Shown: one piece after another, positions 1,418 through 63,163 of the stretch
How the letters are laid out: every line of letters starts with the position of its first letter
Numbering within the stretch: the stretch's first letter is position 1
Source of the DNA: Mytilisepta virgata
Taxonomy: Eukaryota > Mollusca > Bivalvia > Mytilida > Mytilidae
Assembly (NCBI GenBank): GCA_028015205.1
Contig: CM051516.1
Span: 28,758,593-28,822,592 of the forward strand
Length of the DNA: 64,000 nt
Direction of reading: 5' to 3'
Translations under genes and position numbers: made by a program
The notes under the pieces: model-generated
What the model was told of the DNA's origin: nothing
The model's input: the letters and a program-made list of their open reading frames with translations, nothing else
The model's database searches: none

Positions 1418-3064
1418 AGCTCACCTGGCCTAAAAGGCCATGTGAGCTTTTCTCATCACTTGGCGTCCGTCGTCGTCTGTTGTCGTCTGTCGTCGTTAAC
1501 AATTTTTCAAAAATCTTCTCCTCTGAAACTACTGAATGGATTTGGATAAAACTTAGCATGATTGTTCCTTAGGGTATCCTGCACAAAGTTTATGCTTCGA
1601 TTTTTGATCCGTCGAAAAACATGGCCACTGTTACTAAAAATAGAACATAGGGGTCAAACAACAGTTTTTCGCAAGTATCTCAAAAATCATTAGGTTAAGG
1701 CAAGCTCTGGCAGGTTGAAAGTGTTCAGCATGATGAGAGCTACCTGTGTGCTTTTTTTCGTGAAAATCTGTCAACTGATGTTAGAGTTATTGCCCTTTTC
1801 TGACATTTTTGGCTTTTTTTAATGTTATTATTTTAAAAATCTTCTCCTCTGAAACTACTGAATGGATTTGGATAAAACTTAGCATGATTGTTCCTTAGGG
1901 TATCCTGCACAAAGTTTATGCTTCGATTTTTGATCCATCGAAAAACATGGCCACTTTTACTAAAAATAGAACATAGGGGTCAAACAACAGTTTTTCGCAA
2001 ATATCTCAAAAATCATTAGGTTACGCCAAATTCTGCACGTTGAAAGTGTTCAGCATGATGAGAGCTACCTGCGTACTGATTTTCGTGAAAATCTGTCAAC
2101 TGATGTTAGAGTTATTGCCCCTTTTTGACATTTTTGGCTTTTTTTTATGTTATTATTTCAAAAATCTTCTTCTCTAAAACTACTATTCAAAATCAAATGA
2201 AACTTGGTAAGATTGTTCCTTAGGGTATCCTGCAAAAAGTTAATGCTTGGATTTTTGATTGGTCGAAAAACATGTCAGCCCTTACTAAAAATAGAACATA
2301 GGGGTCAAAATGCTGTTTTTTGCTATTCTTTCCTGAATTATAGAAATAAAATGAAGATGAAAGCTACTTTCAAGGCAAACATGGTATCCCGAGTTGAATG
2401 GTGATGATGAAAGTTTGTTTTGGACGGCCATTTTTAAAATGGCTGCCATTTTCCCGCCATTTTTAACACTTGCTCGGATTTCAACAGTATTTGGTTTTTA
2501 AAGTAAACATGGTATCCTTAGTGAATGGTGATGATGAGAATGTTGTATAACAATGATTAAACTTCATAATATGTGAGCTTTTAATTGCCATCACTTGGTG
2601 TCTGTCATAATCGTTGTTAACAAATTTTCAAACATCTTCTCCTCTGAAACTACTAGGGGTATTTGGATGAAACTTAGCATGATTGTTCCTGCAATATTTC
2701 CTTTTCAAGTACAATAAAAAGCCTTAACCCACAATTTTTACATAACTTCTTTCAAACATTTTAAAAACGAAGACAACATATAGACCAAAAGATTTATACT
2801 TGTATTTGAAGATTAATTAAAGCTTGTATTTTGTATTTTGAATCATCAGATTGACCATGACTGTATCTTAATCAAGCGTAGGGAGAACTCATGCCCATTT
2901 CTTTCCAATGAAAATGCAGGTTCTTGAAAGGCTTTTAAAGGTATTTTCAGCATTTTACGTGACCTTTAATACTCAGTTTAATTTACAACAAACATTAATA
3001 TATTAATTTAGTTTATAGTGCATTGTTTACCAGGTGAGCGATTCAGGCTCTTGAGAGCCTCTTG
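1418..3064 (+). mobile_element. F1 family element, copy a (Helitron-like, tandem core)
   Basis: The left edge follows TTTTT and starts AGCTCACCTGGCC, which folds back on GGCCATGTGAGCT a few bases later. GTCCGTCGTCGTC repeats follow. The core repeats a unit of about 325 bp, each carrying CTTCTCCTCTGAAACTACTG (starts near 1509, 1835 and 2160), then degenerates. The right edge is CAGGTGAGCG followed by a GGCTCTTGAGAGCC hairpin and CTTG, then T. The start and end are mutually complementary (AGCTCACCTG and CAGGTGAGCG). No transposase is encoded. This architecture matches non-autonomous Helitron/pearl-type elements of bivalves; that assignment is inference from the hairpin and terminal tetranucleotide. 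Confidence 0.7.
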
Positions 3065-3196
3065 TTGATTGGATAACGTCAAGCGTAAAATCCACGGTTT
3101 ACCGTCGGAACCATTGACGACAACGTTGCGCAAACGCATTTGACATTTCCTGTTTACTTTTTATTCTATTTTTTAACGTTTAACGGAGGTGGCATT

Positions 3197-3374
3197 AGAA
3201 TGGGGATAACTGTGTTGTATTTTATCAGTTGCCGACATAAACCGGTGGTTTTACCATCGCAAATATCCGTTTACCTGGCTCCGCTACGCGTTGCCAGGTA
3301 AACTCAATTTGCAACGGTAAAACCAGCGGTTTACGTTGGCAACTGATAAAATACAATATAGTTATCCCCTAATT
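3197..3374. mobile_element. Foldback MITE with a near-perfect long hairpin
   Basis: Two arms of about 85 nt are inverted copies of each other, with a short centre around CTCCGCTACGCG (about 3285). The outer arms read GGGGATAACTGTGTTGTATT on the left and the complement of it up to AGTTATCCCC on the right; TTTTATCAGTTGCC and the AAACCG(G/C)TGGTTTTACC part also pair. No coding capacity was seen. It probably moved as a foldback/MITE. Confidence 0.75.
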
Positions 3375-3782
3375 ATACCTAATAATAGAATATCCCTAAT
3401 GTAATAGTTTTTCCAGTAGACTGTGGCTCTATAGATTTATTATATTATGTTTTTATAGAATAAGATTTGAGGTAAGGAAGTTAGTATAGATAATAACCCA
3501 TTATTAGAAACCTAATCTGCATAGATCTTATAGAATCCCTGCCCTATATATATATCACAGATAAGGTCAACCTTATGTTTAGATTCTTTGCTTCCCGTAT
3601 GATCGGATTTTTTTTCATAGTTGTTTTTTCTCTTATAGTTTTTCAGGAGTGCAACGACCTCTTTTAACATTTAACAATATTGCTACAATAGATTTTTTGT
3701 TAATTTCTTTTTTTAAATTTATGCTTTTTTGAGTATTTTGTGACAATATACAAAAGAAAATCAACTGAAATGTCCATGGTTT
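3375..3782 (+). other. Gene A intron between repeats
   Basis: AT-rich sequence between the foldback hairpin and the F5 element. Nothing recognisable was seen in it. Confidence 0.4.
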
Positions 3783-5200
3783 TTATCTCGCCTGCGACGA
3801 AAAGTCGCGAAGGCGAGATATAGGTATCACTTTCTGGCGGCGATGGCGTCAGCGGCGTAAACCTTTTTAAAACTTAAATAACTTTGTACATATAATACCT
3901 ACAATTAAGATTTATGGTCCACTAGATAGCTTACCATATAAGGTTTGCCGCAGTATACTTTTCTTGTGACCTTGACCTCATTTTCATGGTTCACTGACTT
4001 CATAGACGTGAATGTAAAATTTGCGTCCAAGTTTCGTGGTTAAATCCATATCTCAGCAACAACTGTAATACCTAGGCAAACCATATTTGGTCTATAGATA
4101 GTTCTTAGAGGGTACATGCCAGTCTAACACCTGGCTTGGGACCTTGACCTCAATTTCATGCTTGAGGGACTATACCACATTTTCATGGTTAAGTCCATTT
4201 CTCAGCAACTATAATACCTAGACCCACTATATTTGGTCAAAAGATAGTTCTCGGTGGGTACATGTCAGTCTGATACCTGCCTTTTGACCTTGACCTCAAT
4301 TTCATGCTTGAGTGACTATGTCACATTTTCATGGTTAAGTCCCTTTTTCAGCAATTATAATACCTAGACCCACCGTGTTTGGTCTATAGATAGTTCTTAG
4401 TGGGTACTTGTCGATATAACACCTGCCTTTTGACCTTGACCTCAGTTTCATGGATGAGTGACCTGTGTCACATTTTCACAATTAAGTCTTTTCTTAGGAA
4501 CTGTAATACCTAAGCCAACCATATAAGGTCAATATATAGTTCTTAGTCACAGGTACATGCCAGTCTGACACCTATCTCTGGACCTTGACCTCAATTTCAT
4601 GCTTGAGTGACTTGTGTTACATTTTTGAGATTAAGTCCATTTCTTAGCAACTGTATTACTTAGGCCCATCATATTTGGTCTGTAGATAGTTCTTAGTGGA
4701 TACATGCCAGTATAACACCTGTCAGCTAATCATTTTCATGATTTAGTCTAATTGTCAGCAACTGTACTACATTTAATTGATAGAAGTTCTTAGTGGGTAT
4801 ATACCACTTTAACATCTGACACCTTACCTTGGACCTCTCTTTCATTCTTGACTGACTTGTTTCAAGTTTTGGATTAATATCCATTTTTTCTCAGCATCTG
4901 CAATACATAGACCAAACATATTTTGTCTATGCTTGGTGGGTGCATGGCTGTCTGATACCTTGACTTGAAATTTCAGACTTGAGTCAAATTTTCATGATTA
5001 AGTCCATTTTTCTGTATCTGTAATACCTATATACAAATTAACCTCAGTTTTAGGTTTGAGTGATTCTTGTCCCATTTTTACAAACAAGCCCATTTCTCAA
5101 TAAATGTTATAAATGTATTATATAGACCCACCATTTTTGGTGGACCCGTCAGCTGGCTAATGGACTAAGTTTTAGGCTTGAATGACATGCATGAGATTTT
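3783..5200 (+). mobile_element. F5 family element with 146 bp tandem core
   Basis: It begins TTTTTATCTCGCCTGCGAC, which pairs with GTCGCGAAGGCGAGAT just downstream to make a strong hairpin at about 3786-3822. The core is a tandem array: GACCTTGACCTCAATTTCAT begins at 4140 and 4286, with related copies at 4432 and 4581, so the period is 146, 146 and 149 bp. Later units decay beyond about 4730, and I could not place the right end. A related array lies on the other strand at 32.8-34.3 kb. No protein is encoded. Confidence 0.65.
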
Positions 5201-5921
5201 TCAGACAAATTATCGCCTGACCATTACTATTTCTTTTGACACATTTTCCTTTGACTTGCAATGTCAGGTATCAGATAATCATTATTCTGTGTCCATGTGC
5301 ATACTCAGGCAAGACATGTAGTGTGTCCACTCTTGTTTATGTTTTATATTTAAATATTTCAAGTAGTTATCTTATTTGTGATTTGGAAATTAGTTTATGG
5401 GAAGCAAAGACACAAATGCTTGCCTGTTGCCCCAAAGGATGACCACAGACTATACAGAAATAAGGGTTTTTAAAATAAGATTTTCAAAGTCAACTTTAAA
5501 GACTTTTTGTCAGGTTTTAAGACAATTTAAAACACTATTATCATTTATACATTACTTGAAGATTTTAGCTTTTTCAATAGAAGTTTTAGAATTTCAAATT
5601 TTAGCAGACTTAGAAGATGTGCACTCTAAATTTCAGCTTTTTCTGAATAGAAAATTTAGAATTTTAACTTATGCTCTCTATCCAATTTGAAAAATCTTTT
5701 TATTATAATTAAGCTTCAAGCAGCTTTGGATATAACAGTTGCAAACAATTTTCACTAATGAAAAATTGATAAAGATAATAAATTAAATAAATTGCTTGCT
5801 TGTGTATAAATTCTCATGATAAAAATTTCTAGAAAGGACATTGTTGACAAAAGTTTAAGCAAAGGAATAATGCTTAAATTGCTGTCATTCATCTAAAAGT
5901 TACTATGAGACATAGACTTTT
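5201..5921 (+). other. Gene A intron, unremarkable
   Basis: AT-rich sequence. It includes two overlapping short open frames with no protein-like composition; I see no exon or repeat family here. Confidence 0.4.
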
Positions 5922-7337
5922 CAGCTTGGTAAAAGGCCATGTGAGCTATTGCCATCACTTTGCGTCCGTCGTCTGTCCTTCCGTCCGTTAACTTTTCACA
6001 TTTCAATCGGGGGCCTTGGTGGCCGAGTGGTCTAGGTAGTTCGTCATGACTACTAATGATCACTAGCCTTTCAACGCTGAGATTGTGAGTTCCTGTGGCG
6101 GGGTTTGTTCGACTCCGATCTTAATTGACAAGGATTGCCAATTTTCCTACCGGTACTCCGGATTCCTCCACCAATAAAAACTGGCCGCCGGGAAATAGCC
6201 AAATGTGCTGAAAACCCTAACTAAACAAAACACATTTCAATCTTCTCCAAAACCCCATGGCAAATTTAAACCAAACTTGGTGGGGATGTTCATTGGATGG
6301 TCCTCTACAAAGTTTATGTTTTTGGTTCTGATCCAAATTCAACATGGCTGCCAAGGCCAATTATTCACTCTGATTGGCTGAAATTTAAAAAAAAAACTTC
6401 TTCTCTGAAACTACAAAAGCATTTGAATTGTTATATTGCAGGAATGATCCTTACATGGTCCTCTACAAACTTTATGTTTTTTGTGCCAATCTGAAATCCA
6501 AGATCACCGCCACCATGGGATACAGTTTACATAGGATCCTATGGGAAATACATACAAACATCTTCTTGTCAGAAACTGTTTGACAGATGGAAGTAATATT
6601 ATGCCTGAATGATCAGATAATGGTCCCTAATAAAATTGATGTTTTTGGTGCCAATCCGAAATTCAGCATGGCTGCTAGAGTCAGCTATGCACTCTGATTG
6701 GTGGAATTTCAAAAATCATCTTCTCTGAAACTACAAAAGCAATTGAATTGTTACATTGCAGGAATGATCCTTACATTGTCCTCTACCAACTTTGTTTTTC
6801 ATGACAATATAAAATCCAAGATGTCTGAAACTACAGAGTCAGTTGGAACCAAACTTGGCAGAAATGGTCCTTAAATGGTCGTCTGCATGAATTGTGTCGG
6901 ATGATCCAAAATGTCAACCAAGATGGCTGCCACAGCTAAACTTAGTTAAACAAAGGACCCTATGGGAAAATTCATTAAAAAATATTCTGATCTGAGACCA
7001 ATTGGCCAATTAGGTCTGCTGACATGGCCTGTCAATCAAGATAGCCACCATAGCTGAACTTAGTTTAACATAGGACCCTATGGGAAAATTTAATTTGCAG
7101 TCACCATACCTTAAACTTGGCCATTTGGACACCAAACTAATACCAAAAGTGCTCTCTTTCAAAATTGTGTTTGATAACCTTGAATGTCAACTAAGATGGC
7201 CACCACACCCTAACATTGTTTAACATTGAACCTATGGGAAAGCTAGCCAAGATAACTGTGCCACTTAAACTATCAGTCCTGCTGAAGGTAGACAAGTTAA
7301 ATCCAGGTGAGCGATACAGTCTCTTTAGAGGCTCTAG
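5922..7337 (+). mobile_element. F1 family element, copy b, split by a SINE
   Basis: The left edge is a degraded version of the F1 start (CAGCTTGGTAAAAGGCCATGTGAGCT), followed by GTCCGTCGTCTGTCC. The core carries repeated segments with CTTCTCTGAAACTACAAAAG and CATAGGACCCTATGGGAAA. The right edge is CAGGTGAGCGATACAG, then a GTCTCTTTAGAGGC hairpin and CTAG followed by TTTT. The SINE at 6009-6230 interrupts it. No coding potential was seen. Confidence 0.65.
6009..6230 (+). mobile_element. SINE-1 (tRNA-derived), nested in F1 copy b
   Basis: It is flanked by perfect 12 bp direct repeats CACATTTCAATC (5997-6008 and 6231-6242). The head resembles a class II (Leu/Ser-like) tRNA, with box A GTGGCCGAGTGGTCTA and a damaged box B region GTGAGTTCCTGTGG. 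The body has the family sequence AATTGACAAGGATTGCCAAT and AAAACTGGCCGCCG. This copy has lost part of its box B and some body bases, so it is probably dead. Confidence 0.85.
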
Positions 7338-13120: not shown

Positions 13121-13358
13121 ATGCCCCGCCTACGAATGTGGATGGGGCATATAGAGTTACCGTTGTCCGTCCGTACGTACATCCGAACTCTGTGGTTGTT
13201 TTGCGATTAGATTAATTTCTTTGCAACTATGCATAGTGTACCAATGAAACTTCATCAGTGGACGTGCCTACAATTATCGCCTGAGCAACTCTGGTAAAGT
13301 TTTGTGTTTGTATGGATTTTAGGGCGGGGCATCCGTGTAATACAGACACAATTTCTAG
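13121..13358 (+). mobile_element. F2 family element, copy a (short core)
   Basis: It starts ATGCCCCGCC, folding against GGATGGGGCAT, then GTCCGTCCGTACGTAC. It ends GGGCGGGGCATCCGTGT, a remnant of the GTGTCT/AGACAC hairpin, ATTTCTAG and then TTT. The same ends bound the longer copy at 46643-47381 on the other strand. Only about one core unit remains. The hairpin plus CTAG|T end is Helitron-like. Confidence 0.65.
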
Positions 13359-17170: not shown

Positions 17171-17955
17171 GTATGCCTTCGCGACGAACAGTCGGGGCAC
17201 ATTAATTTACCTTTGTCCGTCCGTTCGTCCGTCCGGATATAGATACATGGTTTGTTCGGCTATCTCCTCCTACAGTTTTAGAGCTGCAGCTTTGATATTT
17301 TGTAGGATGTTTATACACATACGGGAGGTGTGCATGTCCACGAATTTTATCTTTTTCAAATATTCGCAAAATGACAGGTAGTTGAACTTAGTCATTGTTT
17401 TCGTACTAGCTGCATAATGGGAACATGGTTTGTCCGGCTATCTCCTCCTACAGCTTTAGAGCAACAGCTGTAATATTTTGTAGGATGTTTATACTCATAA
17501 TGGAGGTGTGCATGCCCACAGGATTTTTTTTTTTTTTCAAATATTCGCAAAATGACAAGCAGTTGGACTTTTTTTCGAACTAGCTGCATAATGGGAATAT
17601 GGTTTGTTCGGCTAACTCCTTCTACAGTTTTGGAGCTACAGCTTTAATATTTTGTAGGATGTTTATGCACATAATGAAAGGGTGCATGTCCACAGGATTT
17701 TGATTTTTATTCAAATACTCTCAAAATTACAGGTAGTTGGACTTAATGGGAACATGGTTTGTCCGGCTAACTCCTTCTACAGTTTTAGAGATACAGCTTT
17801 AATATTTTGTAGGAATGGAGGTGTGCATGTCCACAGGATTTAGATTTTTTTCAAATATTCTCAAAATTACAGGTAGCTGAACTTAGTCATTTTTTTCGTA
17901 CTAGCTGCAATTTCTTATGGTCAGGCGGGGGCATCATTTGTGTCTTACAGACACA
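17171..17955 (+). mobile_element. F2 family element, copy c (degraded)
   Basis: The left part resembles the F2 start (GTATGCCTTCGCGACGAA, CGGGGCACAT), followed by GTCCGTCCGTTCGTCCGTCC. The core repeats a unit starting CATGGTTTGT with CTCCTACAG and ATATTTTGTAGGATGTTTAT, at 17246, 17424, 17599 and 17753 (spacing 178, 175, 154). The right part has GGCGGGGGCATC and a GTGTCTTACAGACAC hairpin, but the CTAG end is lost. Confidence 0.6.
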
Positions 17956-18236
17956 CTTCATTTAAAAAAAATCACTCCTAACAAAACAACTTTGTCCATA
18001 ATTATCAAATGCAAGCGGGGGACATACTTCTTTTCTAGTTTTTAAAAAAAAACAAACTAGATTGATTTTTTCCCTTCCACGCAGTCTTGATTTTGGTGAA
18101 ATAAAGAATCGTTTAGTTTAATCAAGTAAAAACATTCCATAACTACAGAGATTAACATATCCAGCAAACTGTTTTGAGACTGAAAATCCTGATGCAAAAT
18201 TTAAAATCTCTGATTAGCCATTGGCAATCTGTCATA
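17956..18236. other. Spacer with a stray F2-like end
   Basis: Contains GCGGGGGACATACTTC followed by TTTTCTAGTTTTT near 18014-18042, resembling an F2 right end without its hairpin. Otherwise nothing recognised. Confidence 0.35.
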
Positions 18237-18913: not shown

Positions 18914-19421
18914 ATAAGTTTCAACACTGTACGATCCAAATGCCTTACAGCAGAAGCATGAAAACTAGAGACTACCAGGAGCCTGTACTGCTTACCTGGA
19001 TTTCATCTGCATGTATTAAGCTGGATATTGTTTTGAATGATGTAGATAGTTAAATGAAAACTTTATGAAATAGGACAGTTTTATATGAAAATCTACAGTA
19101 AAAGTCCTTTATTTCAATTAATTTAAATCAACCTTATTGAAGAAATATAAAATTTCTTCGATATTTAGATGCAGTTTCGAATGTTCTAGCTGCATGTAAA
19201 ATTTCATGAAAATCCGTAATTTAGCGGATTTAAGTACCTCCTACCTTAACCAGAAATCAATAAAAGGACATTTAATTCAGCTATAAATTTAACAAATCTT
19301 TAAATGACTATCAGTAAATATATCTATATAATCTATTGTTTAAATATCATATTACCTTTAAAAATTGTCCGGACTTGTATAAGGAAGTTTAATAAGGCAG
19401 CCATATTATCTTTTACTGACT
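18914..19421 (+). other. Upstream region of the TRIM-like gene
   Basis: AT-rich sequence upstream of the start codon; no clear TATA box, initiator or 5' UTR splice acceptor could be singled out. The promoter is probably here or further upstream. Confidence 0.3.
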
Positions 19422-22470: not shown

Positions 22471-23915
22471 CAAGAGGCTCCCAAGAGCCTGAATTGCTCA
22501 CCTGTTATCTTTCGTGTACCAGTAGATTTTGCATCAATGATTATTTTTGCTATTTAATGTATACCGTCACAATTTTCTCCTTAATATTGACCTGGACAGC
22601 TAAATTATAGAATTCTGAAACCAAATAGATATGGTTGCTAGGGACTTTTTCATCAGTTGCTATTGATTTTTCAATGGCATTGGCTACCGAAAAATATATG
22701 GTTGCTAGGGACTTTTTCATCAGTTGTTATGGACTTTTTCAATGGCATTGACTCTTGACTTTTCTTTTTGACTTATACAGGTAAATTATAAAGTCCTTAA
22801 CATAAATATACATGGTTCCTAGAGACTTTTCATCGGTTGCTATGGACTTTTTCAATGGAATGGACTCTTGACCTTCCATTTTGACTTGTACAGGTAAATT
22901 ATAAGGTCCTGAATCCAAATATATATGGTTGCTAGGGACTTTTTCATCTGTTGCTAGGGCCTTTTTCATCGGTTGCTATGGAATTTTTCAATGATCATGA
23001 CCTTCGCTCCATTTTACTTGTACTGCTACCATTTAATTTATTTCAAGTAACGCCCTAAACATCTGTGACAATGTCAGACCATAATTTTCTGTTTACATGT
23101 AAAGAATCTTTCAAGGGCAAAAACTCCTATAAGGGGTCAATTGACGATTTTGGTCATGTTGACTTATTTGTAGATCTTACTTTGCTGAACATTTTTGTCG
23201 TTTACAGTTTGTCTTTATTTATTATTATATTAAAGATAGGGGCCTCGGTGGGCGAGTGGTCTAGGTAGTTCGTCATGACTACTAATGATCACTAGCCTGT
23301 CAACGCTGGGGTTGTGAGTTCGAATCTCACCTGTGGCGGGGTGTGTTCGACTCTGATCTTAATTGACAAGGATTGCCAATTTTGCTACCGAAGGTCGGTG
23401 GTTCTCTCCGGGTACTCCGGCTTCCTCCACCAATAAAAACTGGCCGCCGCGAAATGGCCAAATGTGTTGAAAATGGCGTTAAACCCCAATTAATCTAACC
23501 TAACCTATATTCAAGATAACAACCTAAAACTGCAAAATTTCCTCAAAATTAACAATTCAAGGCCAATAACCCAACAAAGGGCTGGTAGATCTTGACCTGT
23601 TGAACATTTTTACCCCAATGTCAGTTTTGCCCTCAATGCTTTGGTTTATGAAATATAAGCCAAAAACTGCATTTGACCCCTATGTTCTAATTTTACAACA
23701 GCGGCGATGTTGGTTGATAGATCAAAACTTCAGATATAATTTATAAACTAGATACCATAAGGAACATTCAGTTAAAGTTTGAAGGTATTTTGCCCAGTAG
23801 TTTCAGAGGAGAAGATTCTTGAAATAGTTTACGACAACGACGATGACAGACAATCGACGACAACGGACGCCAAGTGATGGCATAAGCTCACATGGCCCTT
23901 TGGGCCAGGTTAGCT
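22471..23915 (-). mobile_element. F1 family element, copy c, split by a SINE
   Basis: Minus-strand orientation. The right edge (23915) reads back as TTTTTAGCTAACCTGGCC, pairing with GGGCCATGTGAGCT. The left edge has the GGCTCTTGGGAGCC hairpin and CTTG followed by TTC. The core has one array with ATATGGTTGCTAGGGACTTT (near 22629, 22696, 22808, 22922) and a second module, GGCAAAAACTCCTATAAGG to CAATAACCCAACAAAGG, shared with copy d. SINE-1 at 23239-23505 interrupts it. Confidence 0.7.
23239..23505 (+). mobile_element. SINE-1, best preserved copy, nested in F1 copy c
   Basis: Flanked by 13 bp direct repeats TATATTAAAGATA (23226-23238) and TATATTCAAGATA (23506-23518), one mismatch. The head has box A GGCGAGTGGTCTAGGTAG and an intact box B GAGTTCGAATCTCACC. 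The body has GGTTCTCTCCGGGTACTCCG, and the tail is GGCGTTAAACCCCAATTAAT plus TCTAACCTAACC. The matching place in F1 copy d (near 25398) is uninterrupted. Confidence 0.92.
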
Positions 23916-23954
23916 AAAAACATAGAAAAGCCCCTAGTTTCCAGCAAAAAATCC

Positions 23955-24654: not shown

Positions 24655-25786
24655 CCAGAGGCTCCTTGGAGCCTGATCACTCACCTGTGAACCTTAGCAC
24701 CATGGTTGCCAAAATTGGTCCACATTTGACTGAAAGATGACCAATGCTGTTATGTTTGGTTCAAATTGGCTCAGTGGTTCTCATAGGACTCCTATGTTAA
24801 ACCAAGTTTGGCTATGGTGGCCATGTTGGATGACCGACCGAGTCATTGGAAATAATTCTGAAAGAGGAAAACCTAAGGACCATTGCTGCCAAGTTTAGTT
24901 CAAATTGGCTAAGTGGTTAAGGACAAGAAGAAATTTTAGTTATTTTCCCATAGGGTTCTATGTTAAACTAAGTTCGGCTATGGCGGCCATCTTGGATCAC
25001 GGACTGGGTCATCGGACACAATTCTGAAAAAGGACCACCTAAGGACCATTGCTGCTAAGTTTAGTTCAAACTGGCTCAGTGGTTTCGGACAAGAAGAAAT
25101 TTTAGTGTTTTTCCCATAGGGTCCTATGTTAAACTAAGTTCGGCTAAACTAAACACAAACTTTATACTAGATACCCTAATGATCATTCAGCCTAAGTTTG
25201 GCTGAAATTTATGAAGTAGTTTCAGTGAAGAAGATTTAGAAAGTTTACAAAGATGACGAAAAATATGTGAAAAATTGTCTTTAAAGGACAAAAACTCCTA
25301 TAAGAGGTCAATTGACAATTTTTGTCATGTTGACTTATTTGTAGATCTTACTTTGTTGAACATTTTTTCTGTTTACAATTTGTCTTGCTCAATAATAATA
25401 TTCAAGATAATAACCTAAATCTGCAAAATTTCCTTCAAATTAAGAATTCGGGGGCAATAACCCAACAAAGGGTGAACCAATTCGTCTGAAAATTTCATGG
25501 CAGGTGGATGAACATTTTTAACCCATGTCAGTTTTTCTGACAATGCTTTAGTTTTTAAGATATAAGACAAAAACTGCAGTTTACCCCCTATGTTCTATAT
25601 ATTAGCCATGTTTCTCGACGGACAATAAAATAAAACACAAAGTTTATTCTAGATACCCTAAAATCATTTAGACAAAGTATGGCTGTAATTGGTTCAGTGG
25701 TTTCAGAAGAGAAGATCTTTGAAAAAGTTTACGACGGATGCCAAGTGATGGCAAAAACTCACATGTCCTTTTAGGACAGGTGAGCT
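24655..25786 (-). mobile_element. F1 family element, copy d
   Basis: The right edge reads back as TTAGCTCACCTGTCC with its ACATGTCCTTTTAGG partner. The left edge is a GGCTCCAAGGAGCC hairpin, TCTGG and then TTTA. Core units repeat CTAAGTTCGGCTATGGCGGCC. A second module with GTCAATTGACAATTTTTGTC and CAATAACCCAACAAAGGG matches copy c and preserves the pre-insertion site of its SINE. Confidence 0.7.
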
Positions 25787-25872
25787 AATCAATGGTAAAC
25801 ATTAGAAAACAGATATTTATGCTAATGGAAAAGTGGGGAGGGAGCTATGAGGGGCCCAAGTGGTGGCTATGA

Positions 25873-28197: not shown

Positions 28198-28991
28198 CTA
28201 GAAATACTGTGAGCAAAGCTCACTACTTGATACCCCCACACCCCCTATCACAAATCACAAGGAATGGCAAATTCAATGTTTTGCTATGGAAAACCCCAAA
28301 AGTTGGTCAGATCAAAATCTAAAACAGGAGGTGCACTATGGCATCATGTGATGAAGATTCTCTGAAAGTCTCATGGAATTCCCTTTAGTGGTTTAGGAGG
28401 AGTTGCGGATGGCACCCCCTATCACAAGGAATGGCAAGGTCCATGTTTTGGTATGGAAAACCCCTAATGTTGGTTAGATCAATATCTAAAACAGGAGGTG
28501 CATTATAGCATCATGTAAAAAAGATTCTCTGAAAGTTTGATCAAATTCCATTTAGTGGTTTAGGAGGAGTTGGGGATGGCATCATGGTACCCCTATCACA
28601 ATGAATGTCAAAGTCCATGTTTTGGTATGGGTAACTCCAAATATTCATCAGATCAAAATCTAAAATAGGAGATGCACTATGGCATCATGTAATAAAGATC
28701 CCTGAAAGTTTCATCAATTCCTAAGAGTGGTTTAGGAGGAGTTGTGGATGGCATCGTGGTACCCCCGATCACATTGAAAGTAAAAGTCCATGTTTTTCTA
28801 TGGGAAACCCCAAAAATTGGTCCGATCAAATTCTAAAATAGCAGGTGCACAATGCCATCATGGGATGAAGATTCTCTGAAAGTTTCATCAAATTCGATTC
28901 AGTAGTTTAGGAGGAGTTGCGGATACAAAGGTCGGACGAACGGACACAACGAATACTATATACCCCGCTTTTTTTTCAAAAGTGGGGGTAT
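28198..28991 (-). mobile_element. F3 family element with 167-174 bp core
   Basis: Minus orientation. It starts (right edge) TTATACCCCCAC, pairing with AGCGGGGGTATA, then GTCCGTTCGTCCG. The core has four units of a monomer containing AAACCCCAAAAGTTGGTCAG and GGTTTAGGAGGAGTTG, with spacing 167, 174 and 173 bp. It ends (left edge) with a GTGAGCTTTGCTCAC hairpin, AGTATTTCTAG and then TTTAAG. The hairpin plus CTAG|T terminus is Helitron-like. It lies in the last TMEM135 intron. Confidence 0.72.
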
Positions 28992-30000
28992 AATAATCAG
29001 TGCTTTCAATGATCAAGAATATAATATGCTGTTGGCGTGGCCAATGGTGCGAGTGCAGCAATAGCCCTGTCCAGAAACTCATTTCCGCAATCACGATTCT
29101 GACTCTAAAATTATGATTTAAAGCAATTTATTTCCCTTACTTTCCATTTCCGGCAAACGAAATTTTTTCTGGCCTTAGTATGTAGCACAATATGAACAAA
29201 TAAATTCACTTCGGATTGCAGAATGGCTGCCCCCATTAAACAAAGACTTTTCTAAATGACCCATATGTAGAAAATTCATATGCTCCTATAGCACTCGCTA
29301 TAAAACGTTAGGGTAAATTTCTTTCTGTTCTTTCTGACACTCATTCATTTGAATAAGTGAATTGCCTGAAAAAAAATGTTACAAATCAAATACCAAAATT
29401 CCACCATATTACAATAATTTCTGTTAATACATACATTGTATATATATATTTATAATATTTTTTATACATACAATGTATAGATATATTTATAATATTTTTT
29501 GAATTTTACAAGCAAAAACCTGGATTTTACAATAATTCATTAAAATACTCTAGAGGTATAAAACTAATATGATTGTTTAAAATAATATCTGTGAATATCA
29601 CTTATGCATTGTTGGACATAATAACATCCATTTGATTTTGAGCTGCATGTTAAGATCATAAAGTGGAGAAGTATCTCTCTATGAACAGCATGGGTGTAAG
29701 TACAGATGGTGCCAAAAAAACGTAAATTGGGAAGAATCCAATTTTTTATTTAGGAATACCGGAATATATAGACTAAAATGGTGGAAATCGGGCAAATTCC
29801 TGAAAACTTTCAGGCATGGAACAGCAGTTTGTAGCTAGATATTATACACTTTTCTTGCTCTCAGTAATATTCACAAGTGAAACGATCAACACTTGATAAA
29901 ACAGTGCCGGGATGGTAAATAACATCATAAAGGCCAATGATTCCATCAAATTGTATCGTCAATATTGTCTTGCAATGTTTTATTTGATACATCAACTTAC
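28992..30000 (-). other. TMEM135 last intron
   Basis: AT-rich intron. At 29424-29500 a segment of about 38 bp (ACATACATTGTATATATAT, ending TATAATATTTTTT) occurs twice in tandem. Nothing else was recognised. Confidence 0.45.
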
Positions 30001-30599: not shown

Positions 30600-30855
30600 A
30601 ACTTCAAATATAAAAAATTCTGTTTTGTTGACAGCAAAGTAGATTTCCCATGACCCTTCATCACAGTTTGAAGCTGCATGCCCATGAACTAGTAATTAAC
30701 TGTTAAAATTTTTACCATTTCTGCCTTGTTTAATCTTGCCTGTTTTGATTTTTACAATTTCTGAAATTTCAAACACAATCAAGAGAACATAATTAAATGA
30801 AGACATGATATCTTGCAGTCAAACATGACTCAATAAGATCAGTTCATTAAAGAAA
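30600..30855 (-). other. TMEM135 intron between repeats
   Basis: AT-rich. The first 60 bases are homologous to 16690-17060 in the dead copy. Nothing else recognised. Confidence 0.4.
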
Positions 30856-31588
30856 ACTATCTAAAGGCTGTATTGCTCACTTGAAAATCATTTGCAAACT
30901 CAAAGCATAAAAAATAGTGTTTGACTATCTCCATCTTGGCTGCCAAGTTCAAACTGGTTCAGTGGTTTTGCCAAATTGCTCATTTGTTTCAAACAAGAAC
31001 ACCTTTAAGTGGATTTTCCCATAGGATCCTATGTTAGGCTAAGTTCGCTTATGGGAACCATCTTGAATGGTGGTCTGTGTCATTGAATACAAATCTGATA
31101 AAGGACCATCTAATGATCATTTCTGCCATAGGGTCCCTCATTAAACTAAGTTCGCTTGTGGCATTCATCTTGGATGGAAGTAGGGGTCTTCAGATACAAT
31201 TCTGATAAAGGAAAATCTAAGGACCATTGTTGCAGATGGCTTACTCATTTCAGACTAGAAGATATTTAAGTGAATTAACCTTAGGGTCCTATGTTAAATT
31301 AGGTTCGACTGTATGTGGCCATTTTGGATACAATTCTGAAGGGCCATTGCTTCCAGGTGGCTTATTAATTTCAGACAAGAAGATTTTTAAGTCAATTTTC
31401 CCATAGGGTCCTATGTTCTGCCCTTTTGGCCATCTTGGATGGCAGGCGGGGTCTCTAAATTTTGTTTCAATTGGTCCAGTGGTTTCAGATGATTAGATCA
31501 TTAAACATGCTAAAGGACGACAGGTACGGACATCTGACGCATGTCAGGTGATGACAATTGCGAACATAGGCTTTGGGCTTGGTGAGCT
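30856..31588 (-). mobile_element. F1 family element, copy e
   Basis: Minus orientation: right edge reads back TTTTTAGCTCACCAAGCCC; the left edge hairpin is degraded (CTAAAGGCTGTATTGCTCAC). The core repeats TCCTATGTTA..CTAAGTTCG and CCATCTTGGAT. Inside a TMEM135 intron. Confidence 0.62.
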
Positions 31589-39185: not shown

Positions 39186-39626
39186 AATTACATGTCTGGA
39201 TCTGCGTCACCGTCATATGTTTGTCAGGCTAAGTTCAACATGCAAAAATTCATTGTAAAAATTTGCCACATTTGCCCCAAATACGAGGTGCACATCTTCT
39301 ATATGTATATAAACACTAATCAAAGTTTGAAAAATATTGGTTAAATACAGTCGGAGTTACAGATTACACAAAGTATACACCGTTCATAGCATGAATTGAT
39401 GAAAATTGGTTAAGTTCAACATGCAAAATTTCATAGTAAACATTTGTCAAATTTGTCCAAAATAGAAGGTGCACATCTTCAATATGTATATAAACACTAG
39501 GAAAAGTTTGAAAAATACTGGTTTAATACAGTCAGAGTTACAGATTACACAAAGTATGTACCCCTAAGCATGATGGACGGAGTGGAGCAGTTACTAGACC
39601 TGCTTTCACCATTGCTGAAGCAGGTA
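39186..39626 (-). mobile_element. F4 family element, two 181 bp units
   Basis: Right edge reads back TTTTTACCTGCTTCAGCAA, pairing with AAAGCAGGT, then CTCCGTCCATC. Two tandem units with AAGTTCAACATGCAAAA.TTC begin at 39230 and 39411 (181 bp), sharing AGTTACAGATTACACAAAGTA. The left end is not recognisable. Confidence 0.6.
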
Positions 39627-40845
39627 AAAAGAAATATTTTATTTATAACACAAGAGACAGACAACCATCACAGAGATTCTCTTACATTTTACACAAAGTA
39701 CACCAAAAGGGAATATGTAGGCTGTACTAACAACATGGCTGAAAAGTAAAAAAACCTGTCAAACACCCAAAATCATCAATGTTTTTAGACTATATTAAGA
39801 CAATAGCTGAAAGTACAGAACTTGTTAAAAACCCAAAAACATCAATGTGTTTAGACTGTATTAAGATCATGGCTTAATTTTAACAGAACTTGTCAAAAAC
39901 CCAGAATCAGAAAACCATCAAAGTTTTTTCTGTTTTATAAAATTTTCAACTATAGAGACCAATTACCAATATCTGGACATATGGCTTATTTAGGGAAACT
40001 TTCACCATGTCAAACTACTCGATGTTCAGTCTGAAGCAAGAACATTCAGGCTCAAATTATTCAAATTAAATAAATCTCTTCAAATCCAAGTTTAAAAACT
40101 TTGAGTAGTGGAATTTTATGCCACAAATCAATAAACCATATCTCTACATAAAATTATGGCTGAACTAGATCACTTTGTATGGGGAGGTTACAAATGGTAT
40201 GGCTGACACTGCAAAACATCAACATTTAAAATATCAAAATATAATGTTTACAACTATGTTACATGTTCTTATCACATAATAATTGTTTTCCTTCTTCTTT
40301 GATCTTAAGACATTGCCACCCTGACAGTATTTCTTATGTAAGCACAACCGCCATGATGTCTGTGATAAAATATCAAGCCTTACATAACGGACTTTTGGTG
40401 CAAGTTTTGTCCTGTAGACCTAAACAAAGTACCAACTGCCTCTGGCATTAATGACAAAAAACCAAATGAAAGTAAAACTGGTTATGAGTTACAACAATCT
40501 AAGCAAAATAAAACTACACAAAGATACCGGTATCTGAGTAACAATTTTTCTTTGTCAGCGTTTAGAGCCGCCTGCTCGCACATGATGCCAAAACTAATAC
40601 AGGGAAGGAGGAAAATTTGCTAAAATTCTGTTTAACTGGATACGGGGTATGCATCAATGAGCCCTAGTTACAACAAACATGGCTGTAGGTTGATAACAAC
40701 TTCAAGTTGTCCTGTGGCTTTAAATACATGTTTCTAAGCAACCGAAAACATCTCAGGACAGCTGTCATTACAATTTCAATGCCAGTCATAGAAAAATCCA
40801 ATTAAAATACAATCATGTAACAAAGCAGAGCTGGAGATAACCACT
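39627..40845. other. Putative TMEM135 intron
   Basis: Contains an imperfect ~60 bp direct repeat at about 39775-39905 (TGTTTTTAGACTATATTAAG and AACTTGTCAAAAACCCA words). No gene recognised. Confidence 0.4.
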
Positions 40846-44209: not shown

Positions 44210-45322
44210 CCAGAAGCTTCCAAGAGCCTGTATCGCTCACCTGATTTTTCCATTGCTAAAGGACCTTGAGATTAACATCCATGCCATTGCCATGTTTGGT
44301 TTCATTAATTTTCAAGAAGACGCAATTTGTATGTAATTTCATAGGGTCCTATGTTAAACTAAGTCTTCCTCTGACGGCCATCATGGATAACAGATCAGCA
44401 CAAATGTACCAAAACTTGGTCAAAACGTCTTAAGGAGCATTCATGCTATGTTTCAATCCATTCAGCGGATCTATAGAAGAATATTTTAGTATGTAATTTC
44501 CATAGGGGTCTAACTTAAACTAAGTCCCCCCTGGCAGCCATCTTGGATGACGGATCGGCAACAAATTAATAACATTTGGTCAGCACTTCATAAGGAACAT
44601 TCATGCCATTTTTGGTTTGAATCCACTGAGCGGTTCTCTAGAAGAAGATTTTTGTATGTATATTTCCCATAAGGTTCTATGTTGTGCCAAGTCCTTTGAT
44701 GGCGGCCATCTTGGATGATGGATTGGTATTCAAGTACCAACACTTGATCAGCACCTCATAAGGAAAATTCATGCCATGACTGGTTTCAATCCATTCAGCA
44801 GTTCTCTAGAATGTATGAATTTCCCACAGAGTTCTATGTTAAGCTAAATCTTGAATAATGGATCAGCAACACAGTAGCAATACTTGGCCAGCACCTCATA
44901 AGCAACATGTTTGGTTTCAATCCTTTCAGCGGTTCCCGAGAAGAATATTTTTGTAGGTATTTCCCATAATGTCCTATGTTAAACCAAGTCCCCTGCTGGC
45001 AGCCATGTTGGATGACGGATCAGCACCAAAGTAATAACACTTGGTCAGCACCTTCATAGGAACATAACTAATAAGTTTAGTTTCAATCGTTTTAGTCGTT
45101 CTTCAGAAGAAATTAGAAAACACCATGGAGGCCATGTTTTTTGACACATTGAAACCCAAGTTAAAACACTTGAAAAGGACCTTGTAGGGAATATCTATGC
45201 AAAATCTAGTTTCATTCTGTTCAGTGGTTCTCAAGAAAAAGATGATTTTGTGAAAAAAATTAACGAAGCTGCCGGACGCCTATTGATGGCAAAAGCTCAC
45301 ATGACCCTTGAGTCAGATGAAC
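44210..45322 (-). mobile_element. F1 family element, copy f
   Basis: Left edge in minus reading: a GGCTCTTGGAAGC hairpin, TTCTGG and then TTTT. The right part keeps AAAGCTCACATGACCC; the outer arm is mutated. The core repeats units with TTTCCCATA.GGTTCTATGTT, GGCGGCCATCTTGGATGATG and CAGCACCTCATAAGGAACAT, five to six copies, about 150-190 bp each. Confidence 0.68.
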
Positions 45323-45742
45323 TTGAATAAATGAAAAATTATTTGGCAACCTACCAACCCTATTTTTTTTTCAGGGATGTAACCAGTAACACACATTTTT
45401 TTTCTTGGCCTTACAGGCATTATATGATCCACCCCTGAATAAATATCTGACATTTTGTTATCGCCACACATAATTAGAACATATTAACACATCTGTGACA
45501 CAGGACAAACAAGTTCATTTTAAATATTAATAACTATATATCATCTATTTTACTATCTGTAACAGTAACAGCTGCTCTTTGACCTTGATAAAAATCTCCT
45601 AATTCATTTTTAAATATTTTTTTTCCTTCGATTTAATATTGTCATTTTTATGTGGTATCTTTCAAAGCATCTGGTAGGTACTCTATTCTAAATGAGAATT
45701 TTAAATCTACATTTTTCTTCTTCTTTGGTTTAAACTGTTGCC
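45323..45742. other. Spacer, unremarkable
   Basis: AT-rich; nothing recognised. Confidence 0.35.
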
Positions 45743-46589: not shown

Positions 46590-46642
46590 TTATGCAAATG
46601 TCTCTGGTAGAAAAAAATGTATGTATATCAAACATAGTTAAA

Positions 46643-47381
46643 CTAGAAAATGTGTCTATAAGACACAGATGCCCCACCCTAAAAACAATATAGGTTTCTG
46701 AAAATTGAACCTAAACACGAAACTTAACCAAAGTCATTGAAGGATGAAATGTAGGTCATAGTGACCCAAGTGTTGCTGAACTGCGTTGTACTATACAAGA
46801 GGACTGTAGTGGTACAATATCACTGATATATTACTATAGGTTTCTGAGAAATGAACCTAAATGCAAAACTTAACCAAAGTCATTGAAGGATGAAATGTAG
46901 GTCATAGTGACCCAAGTGTGGCTGAACTGCGTTGTACTATACAAGAGGACTGTAGTGGTGAAATATCACTGATATATTACTATAGGTTTCTGAGAAATGA
47001 ACCTAAATGCAAAACTTAACCAAAGTCACTGAAGCATGAAATGTAGGTCATAGCGACCCAACTGTTGCTGAAATGTGTTGTACTATACAAGAGAACTGTA
47101 GTGGTGAAATATCATTGATATATTGCTATAGATTTCTGAGAAATGAACCCAGACGCAAAACTTAACCAAAGTCACTGAAGCATGAAATGTGGGTCAAGGG
47201 TTGCTGAACTGTGTTGTACTATACAAGAGGACTCTAATGGTGAAATATCATGGATATATTACTATATGTTTCTGGGAAATGGAGCTAAACGCAAAACTTA
47301 ACCGAATCGGGACGTACGTATGTACGGACGGACGGACAAGGGTAAATCTATATGTCCCAACCATATTCGTGGCGGGGCATA
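46643..47381 (-). mobile_element. F2 family element, copy b (146 bp core)
   Basis: Right edge reads back TTTTTTATGCCCCGCCACG, partner GGTTGGGACATATAG, then GTCCGTCCGTCCGTACATAC. Five units of a core with GAACCTAAATGCAAAACTTA, at 46691, 46837, 46983, 47129 and 47265: period 146 bp for the first three steps. The left edge is GGTGGGGCATCTGTGTCTTA with TAGACACA (hairpin), TTTTCTAG and then TTT. Best example of the family. Confidence 0.78.
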
Positions 47382-47696
47382 AAAAAACCAATGTATATGA
47401 GAGTCCACTTTCATTTTTGGAAGTCTTTCTTATAGATAGAGAATCTTGCAGAAATTTGCATACTTAATTTCACTGTTTTGAGATCTGGATGATTTAGAAT
47501 ATCCCTTAAATGATCTGCATCCAAAATCAGTATTTCTAAGTTCAATGTATAGAGGACATTTCAAAATGATTATAATACATTTTGTGAAAAATTTTGAAAG
47601 CAGATTGACTGCTGAAACTTTGATGAGCAATGTTCTTAGGATATGATTTTTCAACAAATTCAACATTTAACTTTTCATAAGGACAGCACAAGTAAT

Positions 47697-61112: not shown

Positions 61113-61268
61113 TTATCTAACTACCAATATATTCAAAGTCTCCCGTGGAAATAACTTATCGAATTGGCCGATATTTACCACATAGAAAATCAATCTATTT
61201 TCATTAAGAATCGGGTTTAAAGCCGTGCGCCTTGTCCCAGAATTATGTGGTATTTCTTCGTCTTCCAT
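61113..61268 (-). CDS. Weak candidate first coding exon
   Basis: A minus-strand frame of 51 codons from an ATG at 61268 to TAA at 61113, beginning MEDEEIPHNSGTRRTALNPI. A donor-like GTAAAT follows codon 30, so only about 30 residues might be coding. The 120 bp around the start are richer in CpG and GC than the surroundings, as at a promoter or first exon. I do not recognise the protein and it does not resemble the TMEM135 N-terminus. It may be chance. Confidence 0.28.
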   Translation of the reverse strand: MEDEEIPHNSGTRRTALNPILNENRLIFYVVNIGQFDKLFPRETLNILVVR

Positions 61269-62606
61269 TAGTCAGTAGCGTCACGCTGTACAACAAACAC
61301 GACACTAATCCAGACAATGTGTCACAAAGAACATAAAATATACTGCTTCTATTTGTCATGACACAAACCTATCTTGTATTATATAGTTATACAACCAATC
61401 AATTATTCTCACACATCAATACATAGGAAGATGGAAAGAAACAGCAAAAGACATTTTGTCCCCAATCTCCCATTTGATCTTTTTCTAATATTCTATAATC
61501 ATAAAAATTTTTTCTCCTTCAGGCTATCTAGGTCTGCATTTAATTTAAGACAGTTTCACCACTGACCCATGGTCTGAAAAGCGAATTAAGGGCAACATTA
61601 ATTATTTAAACTCTGTGACTTTTATTTTCGGAAAAATGTTTTGACTTCTTTTAAGCATCACTCAAGACTGGTCTTTCAGCTATGAAACAAATGAAAGTAA
61701 TCCATAATATGAAAATAGAGTATGTATAACCATGCTTATTCTAATTATGCTATTTCAATTCATAGGTCTATAGTCTTTTTTAACTACAGAAACTATTAGT
61801 TAGATTAGAGTCTAGAGGTCAATTATAGGAAAACATGCAGAATCTTTGTCATTAAAACAGAAGGTAGACTATACGGTTACTCAATGATGTGGAGAAAAAG
61901 ATAAAATAGCAGACCATGGACTACCTACTATGGATACACAAGCTGAATATGTATGGCTTCTTTACACATTATTGGTATCTCTTGAACAGGAATCCAACAG
62001 TGAATTTCTAAATTCTTTTCATCCCTACGTCTCACTCTCAGGTTTGCAGAAAAAATACAATGATGCAAAAAAAACAATTCCCTAATAACAATTTTAATGC
62101 ACTGTGTACATAAGAACAAAATGGATAATAGGAAAGGTCAATAATGACACACTATAAATCAAAGCAACCAAACCTACAGAACCCAGGACAAAAAAATAAC
62201 ATAAATGAATACAAAACAGAAGTTTACATAAACACAACATAGAGTCAGGATAGTCAGTGACTTGGTACAGACACTAAACTGTGGTGGGGTTCAAACGGTT
62301 CTATGCATCACCCAAAACCTCCCCCTTATCTATCATGGCACTCTGGTGTATAAAACATACCATAAAAACCAATACATTGTAAAACTAGCTGAGGCTCACA
62401 TAGCATAGCACTAGGCCTGCATTTCACAAAAATCGTACAGCTATGATTAATCATACATCTTATTTATTGTACACAGAATATTTGGCAATTATTTCGCAGT
62501 TCCATCGTAGTCATATGATTTGTTTGTTAAATGAGGGCCAAGAGCATATATTTTGCATATTTATGAAAAAAAATAAATATATACAACACATCTTACCAAT
62601 ATTAAA
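61269..62606. other. Gene-free AT-rich stretch
   Basis: Would contain the promoter of the candidate exon at 61268 if that is real (minus strand). Nothing else recognised. Confidence 0.3.
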
Positions 62607-63163
62607 CAAGAGGCTCAAGAGAATTGAGCCTGTATAGCTTACCTGACAGTACCACAATCAATCCATTTTATTTCAAGTGAAATTGTAATGGACCTTCCAT
62701 AGATGTTTCATACCAAGTATCAGTTAATTTGGTTATAACTGGTTTCAGAGGAGGAGATTTTTTAAATTTTGACCAATCAAAAATAAGAATTCATCATAGC
62801 TGCCATATTAGCTGTCCGACCGGGACGAAATATGCAAACTTTATAAAGGTCCTTCCACAGATGCTTCATACCAAGCTACAGCTCATTTGGCTTTGCAGTT
62901 TCAGAAAATTGAATTTTTAAAATTTTGACCAATCAGAAATAAGAATTCATCATGGCGGCCATATTAGTTGTCCGACCGGAATGAAATACACAAACTTTAT
63001 AAATCTCCTTCCATAGATGCTTCACACCAAGTTTCAGTTCATTTTTCCTATGGGTTTCAGAGGAGAAAATCAAAATGTAAAAGTTTACAGACGGACGGAC
63101 AGAAGGACAAACGGATACCAAGTGATGACAAAAGCTCACATGGCCCTTTGGGCCAGGTGAGCT
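62607..63163 (-). mobile_element. F1 family element, copy g (short, well-preserved ends)
   Basis: Right edge reads back TTTTTAGCTCACCTGGCCCA, partner GGGCCATGTGAGCTTTTGTC, then GTCCGTCCGTC. Two to three core units with GACCAATCAGAAATAAGAATT and TTCATACCAAG..ACAG. Left edge: GGCTCAATTCTCTTGAGCC hairpin, TCTTG and then TTTAA. At 557 bp it is the most compact complete copy and the best template for the family ends. Confidence 0.78.

What the first reader, a model, noticed from the sequence alone, without database searches (positions are those of the whole stretch)
1418..63163. Five repeat families unrelated in sequence share one building plan
F1 (seven copies with at least one recognisable end), F2, F3, F4 and F5 have different sequences but the same order of parts. 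Where visible these are: a TTTTTA or TTATA edge; a 5' hairpin (AGCTCACCTGGCC, ATGCCCCGCC, TATACCCC, ACCTGCTT or ATCTCGCCT with its complement); a GTCCGTCCG-type tract; a tandem core; a 3' hairpin; and CTAG, CTGG or CTTG followed by T. F2 and F3 end hairpin + 5-9 nt + CTAG|TTT, as Helitrons do. Bivalve 'pearl' elements and Helentron/DINE-type elements have tandem cores, so the class may be known. The common grammar with independent hairpins and cores looks like a set of elements served by one mobilising machinery. The 5' hairpin and the CCGTCC tract are not explained by textbook Helitron rules and may be recognition sites.
Basis: partly seen in the sequence, partly recalled or inferred. Interest (0 to 1): 0.85.

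Follow-up and report, generated by a model that had tools for sequence, protein, structure and literature searches.

The report
Bivalve rolling-circle transposons sharing one plan
The five repeat families are short, protein-less relatives of known rolling-circle jumping genes (Helentrons and Helitron2) in a mussel-like genome, and for one of the five types the same genome still holds a full-length, protein-coding element with the same ends.

Summary
It was found for F1, F2, F3 and F5, not F4. In the source genome (1.03 Gb, bivalve-like) the F1 arm occurs 13,880 times against 1 for the reversed control.

New here:
- The F5 type has a 20.9-kb element (K) with an open Rep ORF of 2398 aa. Its ends match those of non-autonomous copies: 5' 2.5 kb at 99.8%, 3' 292 of 292 nt (copy L058).
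- A second coding lineage (C) has the same plan but different end letters.
- Filled/empty sites for one F1 copy, one K derivative and one C copy all show insertion into a T-run with two extra T's and no other duplication.
- Cores are not independent: F2-2 and F5 cores are related, and K carries one array akin to each.

The class is known. A coding partner answers a point left unresolved for oyster HINEs. Partners for F1-F4 were not found.

The parts
1413..3066 (+). F1-1, complete: TTTTT|AGCTCACCTG arm + IR, GTC-rich tract 1464-1496, 325-bp core from 1505, 3' subTIR 3031, palindrome, CTTG end at 3064 | TT. Contains a second F1-like 5' fragment near 2570.
   Evidence: paralogous empty sites
5918..7337 (+). 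F1-2, 5' arm eroded, GTCC tract, core, 3' end CAGGTGAGCG...CTAG|TTTT; carries a tRNA-type SINE near 6009-6230
22471..23920 (-). F1-3, complete, ends CTTG|TT
24655..25791 (-). F1-4, complete, 166-bp core, ends CTGG|TTT
30850..31593 (-). F1-5, 5' end and eroded 3' end (no CTNG)
44210..45323 (-). F1-6, eroded 5' arm, core, 3' end CTGG|TTTT
62607..63168 (-). F1-7, complete, 156-bp core, 3' subTIR CAGGTAAGCT, palindrome, CTTG|TTT
18965..18998 (-). F1-8, orphan 3' end, CTAG|TTTT
13121..13358 (+). F2-1: ATGCCCCGCC arm + IR, GTCCGTCCG tract, no tandem core, 3' subTIR GGCGGGGCAT, CTAG|TTTT
46643..47385 (-). F2-2: same ends, 146-bp core (46689-47303), 3' subTIR GGTGGGGCAT, hairpin, CTAG|TTT
17176..17965 (+). 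F2-3: eroded F2-type ends with a different 174-bp core (17245-17744)
28198..28995 (-). F3: TATACCCCCAC arm + IR, GTCC tract, 167-bp core, 3' subTIR GTGGGGGTAT (10/10), hairpin, CTAG|TTT
39230..39631 (-). F4: 5' arm ACCTGCTT + complement and 181-bp core; no 3' end found
3780..5335 (+). F5: TTTTT|ATCTCGCCTGCGAC hairpin, GGCGGCGA tract, 146-bp core (4032-4721), 3' subTIR CAGGCAAGAC at 5306, CTTG|TTT end at 5335 (found by homology to element K)

Best explanation
The five families are non-autonomous rolling-circle transposons of the Helitron2/Helentron branch (HINE/DINE/pearl type). Inferred mechanism, from established knowledge of this branch: a Rep-helicase encoded elsewhere in the genome recognises the 5' subTIR/IR hairpin, nicks at the T edge, and peels off and copies one strand through the tandem core. 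It stops at the 3' module (the inverted copy of the subTIR, usually a palindrome, CTNG), and the copy is inserted into a run of T's. Shown here: the anatomy; the own-family match of 5' and 3' inverted repeats; insertion into T-runs with two extra T's and no other duplication, in one element each of three families; and an element with an open Rep ORF (K) whose ends are those of an F5-type non-autonomous family. Inferred: the biochemistry, and the helpers of F1-F4.
For: (a) Own-family 3' subTIR: strictly best in 13 of 15 ends, tied in 2. (b) Genome copy number: F1 arm 13,880 against 1 in the reversed control. (c) Helpers: 150 of 317 PF14214 candidates scored, all 150 listed over the cut-off, many in open frames of 1,800-2,900 aa. 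Of the 30 loci received, 23 read GSPH, the motif PMC4067079 gives as the Helentron signature, 3 read GLPH and 4 GQPH. Lineage C ORF (1849 aa): GSPH, Helitron_like_N 3e-33, PIF1 2e-28. (d) Lineage C ends: 8 copies shown at 100% identity on 4 contigs start at query 1677-1689; hairpin z -5.9; 3' end ranked first by the pairing scan and repeated in a second copy. (e) Element K: the 39 other near-full rows of the 40 candidates scored (of 4377) all start at the F5-type 5' module; 7 run on into the ORF, 32 leave K's sequence at query 2441-3251. Three of the 32 were fetched: 99.6-99.8% identical to K over the shared 5' part. The 3' end of one, L058, is 292 of 292 nt identical to K; L059 and L060 match L058 there (at least 189 nt, 100%). 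K's 2398-aa frame starts with an OTU protease region, holds the PF14214 hit and ends where the frame predicts. (f) Empty sites: F1-1 7 T's filled against 5 empty in 10 of 10 loci read; K derivative L058 10 against 8; lineage C 9 against 7. (g) The published HINE plan is the same.
Against: The loose blind scan did not separate the window from a direct-repeat decoy. The pairing scan that found lineage C's end found no pair for A, B, D, E or K. The 3' palindrome is weak or missing in the K/F5 end (z 0.25). F4 has no 3' end. No empty site was found for F2 or F3 (8 of 9 window junctions gave none, with only 40 of 777 candidates scored). Pfam shows no endonuclease in lineage C, so C is better called Helitron2 than Helentron sensu stricto. 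The Rep domain of K was not read letter by letter; it rests on the PF14214 hit (E 1.7e-26). The window's F5 is only 68% identical to K.
Confidence: 0.93

Rival explanations
1. Canonical Helitrons (Helitron1): 5' TC, 3' hairpin + CTRR, insertion between A and T, no end inverted repeats.
For: F2 and F3 end hairpin + 4-7 nt + CTAG. GLPH-type Rep loci also exist in this genome (3 of 30 read).
Against: F1, K, C and F5 end CTTG, or CTGG/CTAG in some F1 copies; inverted repeats near both ends; insertion inside T-runs; the coding lineage C with such ends has the GSPH motif.
Confidence: 0.03
2. MITE-like or foldback elements moved by a cut-and-paste transposase; the hairpins are terminal inverted repeats.
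For: Short elements with inverted repeats near both ends; pearl was first filed as a MITE (PMC7492417).
Against: The 3' copy of the repeat starts about 30-40 nt before the end, not at the end; no target duplication except, at most, TT; ends shared with an element whose ORF bears a Rep domain.
Confidence: 0.02
3. Ordinary satellite or tandem arrays whose similar edges are chance or AT-rich bias.
For: The loose scan in AT-rich DNA gives many chance structures.
Against: Shared boundaries in 39 of 39 other near-full rows of K and 8 copies of lineage C; 40 matches across the joined F1-1 flanks, 10 of them read; 13,880 against 1 for the F1 arm.
Confidence: 0.01
4. One single helper protein serves all five families.
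For: Same grammar and the same two extra T's in the three families tested.
Against: The two resolved coding lineages have different subTIRs (TGCCTGAACT and GTCTCGCCTG), and each matches its own 3' end best. Nothing links F1-F4 to K or C by their ends.
Confidence: 0.1

Closest known systems
Cg_HINE elements of Crassostrea gigas (Vojvoda Zeljko et al. 2020, PMC7492417)
   Same: 5' subTIR, complementary IR, GTCY/GTCC microsatellite, mostly 140-180 bp core array, 3' subTIR + palindrome, TT/T-rich target without TSD; several families with unrelated sequences; same flanks with different cores (their group 2, here F2).
   Different: There the partner was unresolved; here an F5-type family has one. 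Here distantly related cores sit between unrelated ends, and the coding element itself carries the cores.
DINE-1 / HINE and Helentrons (Thomas et al. 2014, PMC4067079)
   Same: subTIR + IR + microsatellite + 3' stem-loop; T-rich target, uncertain T count; OTU-like protease in some coding elements; GSPH Rep motif.
   Different: No endonuclease domain was found by Pfam in lineage C; not tested in K. Their end sequences were not compared with these.
Helitron2 elements of Fusarium (FoHeli, PMC5148889)
   Same: Asymmetric terminal inverted repeats with the 3' copy 20-40 bp inside; a 5' hairpin; one group lacks the 3' hairpin, as K/F5 does here.
   Different: FoHeli1/2 insert at TNAT|A rather than in T-runs; no tandem core is described in the passages read.
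Pearl elements of bivalves, MgE of Mytilus, DTC84 of Donax
   Same: Pearl has a short array of ~160-bp central repeats and was re-filed as a non-autonomous Helentron; MgE and DTC84 are said to be of comparable architecture (as stated in PMC7492417).
   Different: Their sequences were not at hand, so no alignment was made.

Membership tests
HINE (non-autonomous Helentron/Helitron2) | 5' subTIR repeated inverted near the 3' end | tested here: met
   F1, F2, F3, F5: 8-10 of 10. F4: no 3' end found.
HINE (non-autonomous Helentron/Helitron2) | IR complementary to the 5' subTIR close by | tested here: met
   fold of F5 (z -5.7) and of the K-type 5' end (z -5.0). The 5' arm or IR is eroded in F1-2, F1-5, F1-6 and F2-3.
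HINE (non-autonomous Helentron/Helitron2) | Short microsatellite after the 5' module | tested here: met
   GTC/GTCC in F1-F3, a single CCGTCC in F4, GGCGGCGA in F5 (CGGCGA repeat in K).
HINE (non-autonomous Helentron/Helitron2) | Palindrome near the 3' end | tested here: inconclusive
   Three window ends folded: F1-7 (z -2.8), F2-2 (-4.2), F3 (-2.6); also lineage C (-1.7). Not met in the K-type end (z 0.25). Window F5 end not folded.
HINE (non-autonomous Helentron/Helitron2) | T-rich/TT target, no target duplication beyond T's | tested here: met
   F1-1, a K derivative and lineage C: two extra T's only. F2, F3, F4 not shown.
HINE (non-autonomous Helentron/Helitron2) | Coding partner with the same ends | tested here: met
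   F5 type only: K. F1-F4: none found among six lineages looked at (A, B, C, D, E, K), of which only C and K have both termini known.
Helentron sensu stricto | GSPH Rep motif 2 | tested here: met
   23 of 30 PF14214 loci read and lineage C itself. Letters of K not read.
Helentron sensu stricto | Endonuclease domain in the Rep-helicase protein | tested here: not met
   Lineage C ORF, Pfam at E 0.01: none. Not tested in K.
Helitron1 (canonical) | 5' TC, 3' CTRR, insertion at A|T | tested here: not met
   T-run insertion; CTTG ends; no TC start. CTAG of F2/F3 alone would fit.
MITE / TIR transposon | Terminal inverted repeats and a fixed target duplication | tested here: not met
   Subterminal repeats; at most TT duplicated.

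The most novel reading that the evidence does not exclude
The satellite-like cores are native parts of the coding Helentron/Helitron2 elements, not later captures: K keeps two 146-bp arrays between its 5' module and its ORF, and HINEs arise by internal deletion that keeps core and ends. Ends and cores then recombine among families, so that elements with unrelated ends carry related cores (F2-2 with F5, F2-3 with F4, F1-1 with F3). Each helper lineage reads its own subTIR, while all share one T-run integration rule that leaves exactly two extra T's.
Probability: 0.4. Interest if true: 0.6.

Novelty: new member of a known kind. Interest (0 to 1): 0.42.

Why it matters
Tandem-repeat-bearing HINEs are abundant in the Pacific oyster and F1 is abundant here, and the partner of the oyster set was reported as unresolved (PMC7492417). 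An F5-type family here has a partner with eight copies (K and seven others) that reach the ORF and are 99-100% identical over the 5' stretch compared, so they look recently active. That makes transposition, end recognition and the origin of satellite-like arrays testable in one genome. The two extra T's in three unrelated families are a concrete prediction for the integration step.

Tried and rejected
Tried without result. Blind whole-window scan for linked 5'/3' modules: not discriminating. Pattern scans for F1 ends in viral contigs (two) and genome contigs (one): 0 hits. Rfam at gathering threshold: 0 matches. Coding lineage A: five of eight near-full rows, the fetched copy included, match the whole 5 kb fetched upstream at 99-100%, so the terminus was not reached; the F5-like module found there is inside the shared stretch, so A is not shown to be an F5 partner. 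Lineage B: no termini found. Lineage D: an F3-like module upstream of the ORF looked like a partner for F3, but two copies are identical on both sides of it (100% over 2001 nt), so it is not a boundary; rejected. D's 3' end is likely ...CTAG|T. Lineage E: terminus not reached (4500 nt at 99.8%). F4 3' end: not found. Counts of the F5 module genome-wide: not completed; counts for F2-F4 were planned and not run. In one search the left edge used for F1-6 was 8 nt too far inside the element, so its junction was imperfect. My note after says 31 truncated copies; the table gives 32, which is used here.

Considered and rejected: canonical Helitron, MITE, plain satellite (see rivals).
Full report
What was checked. 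A B-box/NHL-type ORF at 19383-21098 has its best named matches in Mytilus (best hit 44% identity; 82 proteins at E<=0.001, the two weakest from Tegillarca), so the source is probably a mytilid or near relative. No species name was available.

The observation. It did not see that the 5' arm is repeated, inverted, starting about 30-40 nt before the 3' end. In the last 60 nt of 15 ends (eight F1, three F2, one F3, the window F5, one K derivative and lineage C) the reverse complement of the family's own arm scores 8-10 of 10. It is strictly best in 13 of 15, and ties with another family's arm in two (F1-8 and the eroded F2-3) (K and window F5 counted as one family). An earlier run on 12 of these ends gave 2 to 1249 of 20,000 random window 10-mers reaching the own-family score, by end. 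Against this, a loose blind search for such linked structures is not usable: 15 in the window, mean 4.2 and maximum 11 in 63 shuffles, but 18 for a direct-repeat decoy.

Exceptions to the grammar. F4 has no 3' end. F2-1 has no tandem core. The 3' end of F5, found only through its relative K, lacks an evident palindrome; the K-type end folds no better than shuffles (z 0.25, against -1.7 to -4.2 for C, F1-7, F2-2 and F3). F5's tract is GGCGGCGA-like. F1-5 and F2-3 lack CTNG.

Known class. Thomas et al. 2014 (PMC4067079; passages read) describe DINE-1/HINE elements by subTIRs, a short IR by the 5' subTIR, a microsatellite, sometimes central repeats, a 3' stem-loop and TT or T-rich targets. Vojvoda Zeljko et al. 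2020 (PMC7492417; parts 1-4 of 7 read) describe 11 such elements in the Pacific oyster, several with GTCY/GTCC/GTCK microsatellites, with cores mostly of 140-180 bp, some unrelated in every module. Helitron2 elements of Fusarium (PMC5148889; passages) have asymmetric inverted repeats with hairpins, one group without the 3' hairpin. So the 'five families, one plan' is the published plan.

Coding elements in this genome. PF14214 (Helitron_like_N) gave 150 scored matches of 317 candidates, all listed as over the cut-off, many in open frames of 1,800-2,900 aa and in near-identical groups. Of the 30 loci received, 23 carry RGSPH (the Helentron signature in PMC4067079), three RGLPH and four RGQPH. 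Six lineages were examined for termini (A, B, C, D, E, K). Two were resolved at both ends.

Lineage C (G000:C6:11904145-11917704, 13.6 kb). Eight copies on four contigs, shown as 100% identical over 8.3 kb, begin at the same place (query 1677-1689): T-run | GCCTGAACTATTAAGTTCAGGC, a hairpin with z -5.9. A pairing scan of the flanks ranked the 3' end first: AGTTCAGGTA, palindrome, CTTG|TT. A second copy diverges from the first just after CTTG TT. The 1849-aa ORF has the GSPH motif, Helitron_like_N, PIF1 and DUF6570 domains and no endonuclease match. A following ORF has a weak HIN-200 match (E 3e-4, below Pfam's cut-off).

Lineage K, the partner of the F5 type (G000:C7:40630316-40651246, 20.9 kb). 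Of 4377 candidates 40 were scored: K itself and 39 other long matches. All 39 start at the F5-type 5' module TTTTT|GTCTCGCCTGCGACGAAA... (query 249-262). Seven run on into the ORF region and 32 leave K's sequence at query 2441-3251. Three of the 32 were fetched (L058-L060). L058 and L059 are 99.96% identical over 2.79 kb; the shared 5' parts are 99.6-99.8% identical to K. L058's last 290 nt plus TT are 292 of 292 identical to K's 3' end. The 3' end is CAGGCGAGAC...CTTG|TT, the perfect inverse of the 5' arm GTCTCGCCTG. The Rep domain lies in a 2398-aa open frame. That frame begins at L053:3010 and ends at the first stop in L054, which gives 2398 aa; the stretch between, with the Rep letters, was not fetched. 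Its N-terminus has an OTU protease match (E 3.5e-10) and a C2H2 match just under the cut-off. The window's F5 copy aligns with K's 5' part over 945 nt at 68% (E 1e-96), and its 3' end at 5306-5335 was recognised by searching for K's subTIR. It shares TCTCGCCTGCGACGAAA with K, which would meet the 11-bp subTIR rule of PMC4067079 for one family. K is therefore the coding relative of the F5 type. It is not the immediate parent of the old window copy.

Filled and empty sites. F1-1 sits inside another dispersed repeat. A query of twelve joined flanks gave 41 hits: 40 span the F1-1 junction and one the L058 junction; the other ten junctions gave none (40 of 777 candidates scored). Ten of the F1-1 sites and the L058 site were read: F1-1 7 T's against 5 in all 10; L058 10 against 8. 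For lineage C, with flanks 98.6% and 99.7% identical to one unfilled locus, 9 against 7. Thus one element of each of three families sits in a T-run with two extra T's and nothing else. Whether the T's belong to the element or are a TT duplication cannot be told.

Cores. Two K arrays of 146-bp period lie between its 5' module and the ORF, and the derivative L058 keeps them. Local alignments of hand-picked monomer pairs against 100 shuffles each (45 pairs of ten cores): F5-K1 z 68, F2-2-K2 47, F5-K2 18, F2-2-F5 17.5, F2-2-K1 15, F1-1-F1-4 13, F2-3-F4 11.5, F1-1-F3 9.8, F1-1-F1-7 9.0, F1-7-F1-4 8.4, F3-F4 6.5, F1-7-K1 5.4, K1-K2 3.8; the other 32 of 45 are under z 3, among them F2-2 with F2-3 (-2.1). 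Reverse-complement scores stay at background. So F2-2 and F5, with unrelated ends, have related cores in the same orientation, F2 ends carry two different cores, and F2-3's core is related to F4's.

Mechanism. Shown: anatomy, end matching, integration footprint, a coding element with the same ends for the F5 type. Inferred from the biology of the branch: nicking at the T edge by the Rep domain, strand displacement by the helicase, termination at the 3' module, single-strand insertion. The 5' hairpin with its 3' inverse is the likely lineage-specific recognition pair; the tract is of unknown role.

Not in print, as far as searched: six paper searches (listings) and passages of PMC8268682, PMC12818792 and PMC10294476 showed no report that links a bivalve HINE to a coding partner. 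PMC7492417 says it could not relate any of 10 coding elements to its HINEs. Subscription papers and Repbase were not searchable, so this is no proof of priority.

Noticed in passing
window 5997-6242: A tRNA-type SINE is inserted in F1-2, flanked by a 12-bp duplication CACATTTCAATC (5997-6008 and 6231-6242); related copies lie near 16831, 23239, 26008 and 46317-46591.
   Followed up: partly
window 1373-1417 and 3065-3369: F1-1 sits inside a dispersed repeat with 40 further matches across the joined flanks genome-wide (92-96%); a 63-nt inverted repeat (3202-3264 / 3307-3369) suggests this host repeat is itself a transposon.
   Followed up: partly
window 40840-41712: A 38-bp minisatellite of 23 copies, not seen to be linked to any of the families.
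   Followed up: no
window 19383-21098: Open frame of 572 aa, B-box + NHL type (TRIM-like), with many relatives in Mytilus.
   Followed up: partly
L047 about 3207-3271 (-): A further 5' module of the same plan: TAGTCCCCTACCGG hairpin followed by GTCCGTCCGTCTGTCTG, downstream of the ORF of coding lineage A.
   Followed up: no
L046 (lineage A upstream): Coding lineage A copies share over 5 kb upstream with several nested HINE-like pieces (F3-like 3' ends at 539 and 960, an F5-like 5' module at 1008), so the element may be very large or composite, or part of a larger duplication.
   Followed up: partly
window 38324 (-): Possible further 5' module: GGGGGGTATAC followed by GTCC/GTCT repeats.
   Followed up: no
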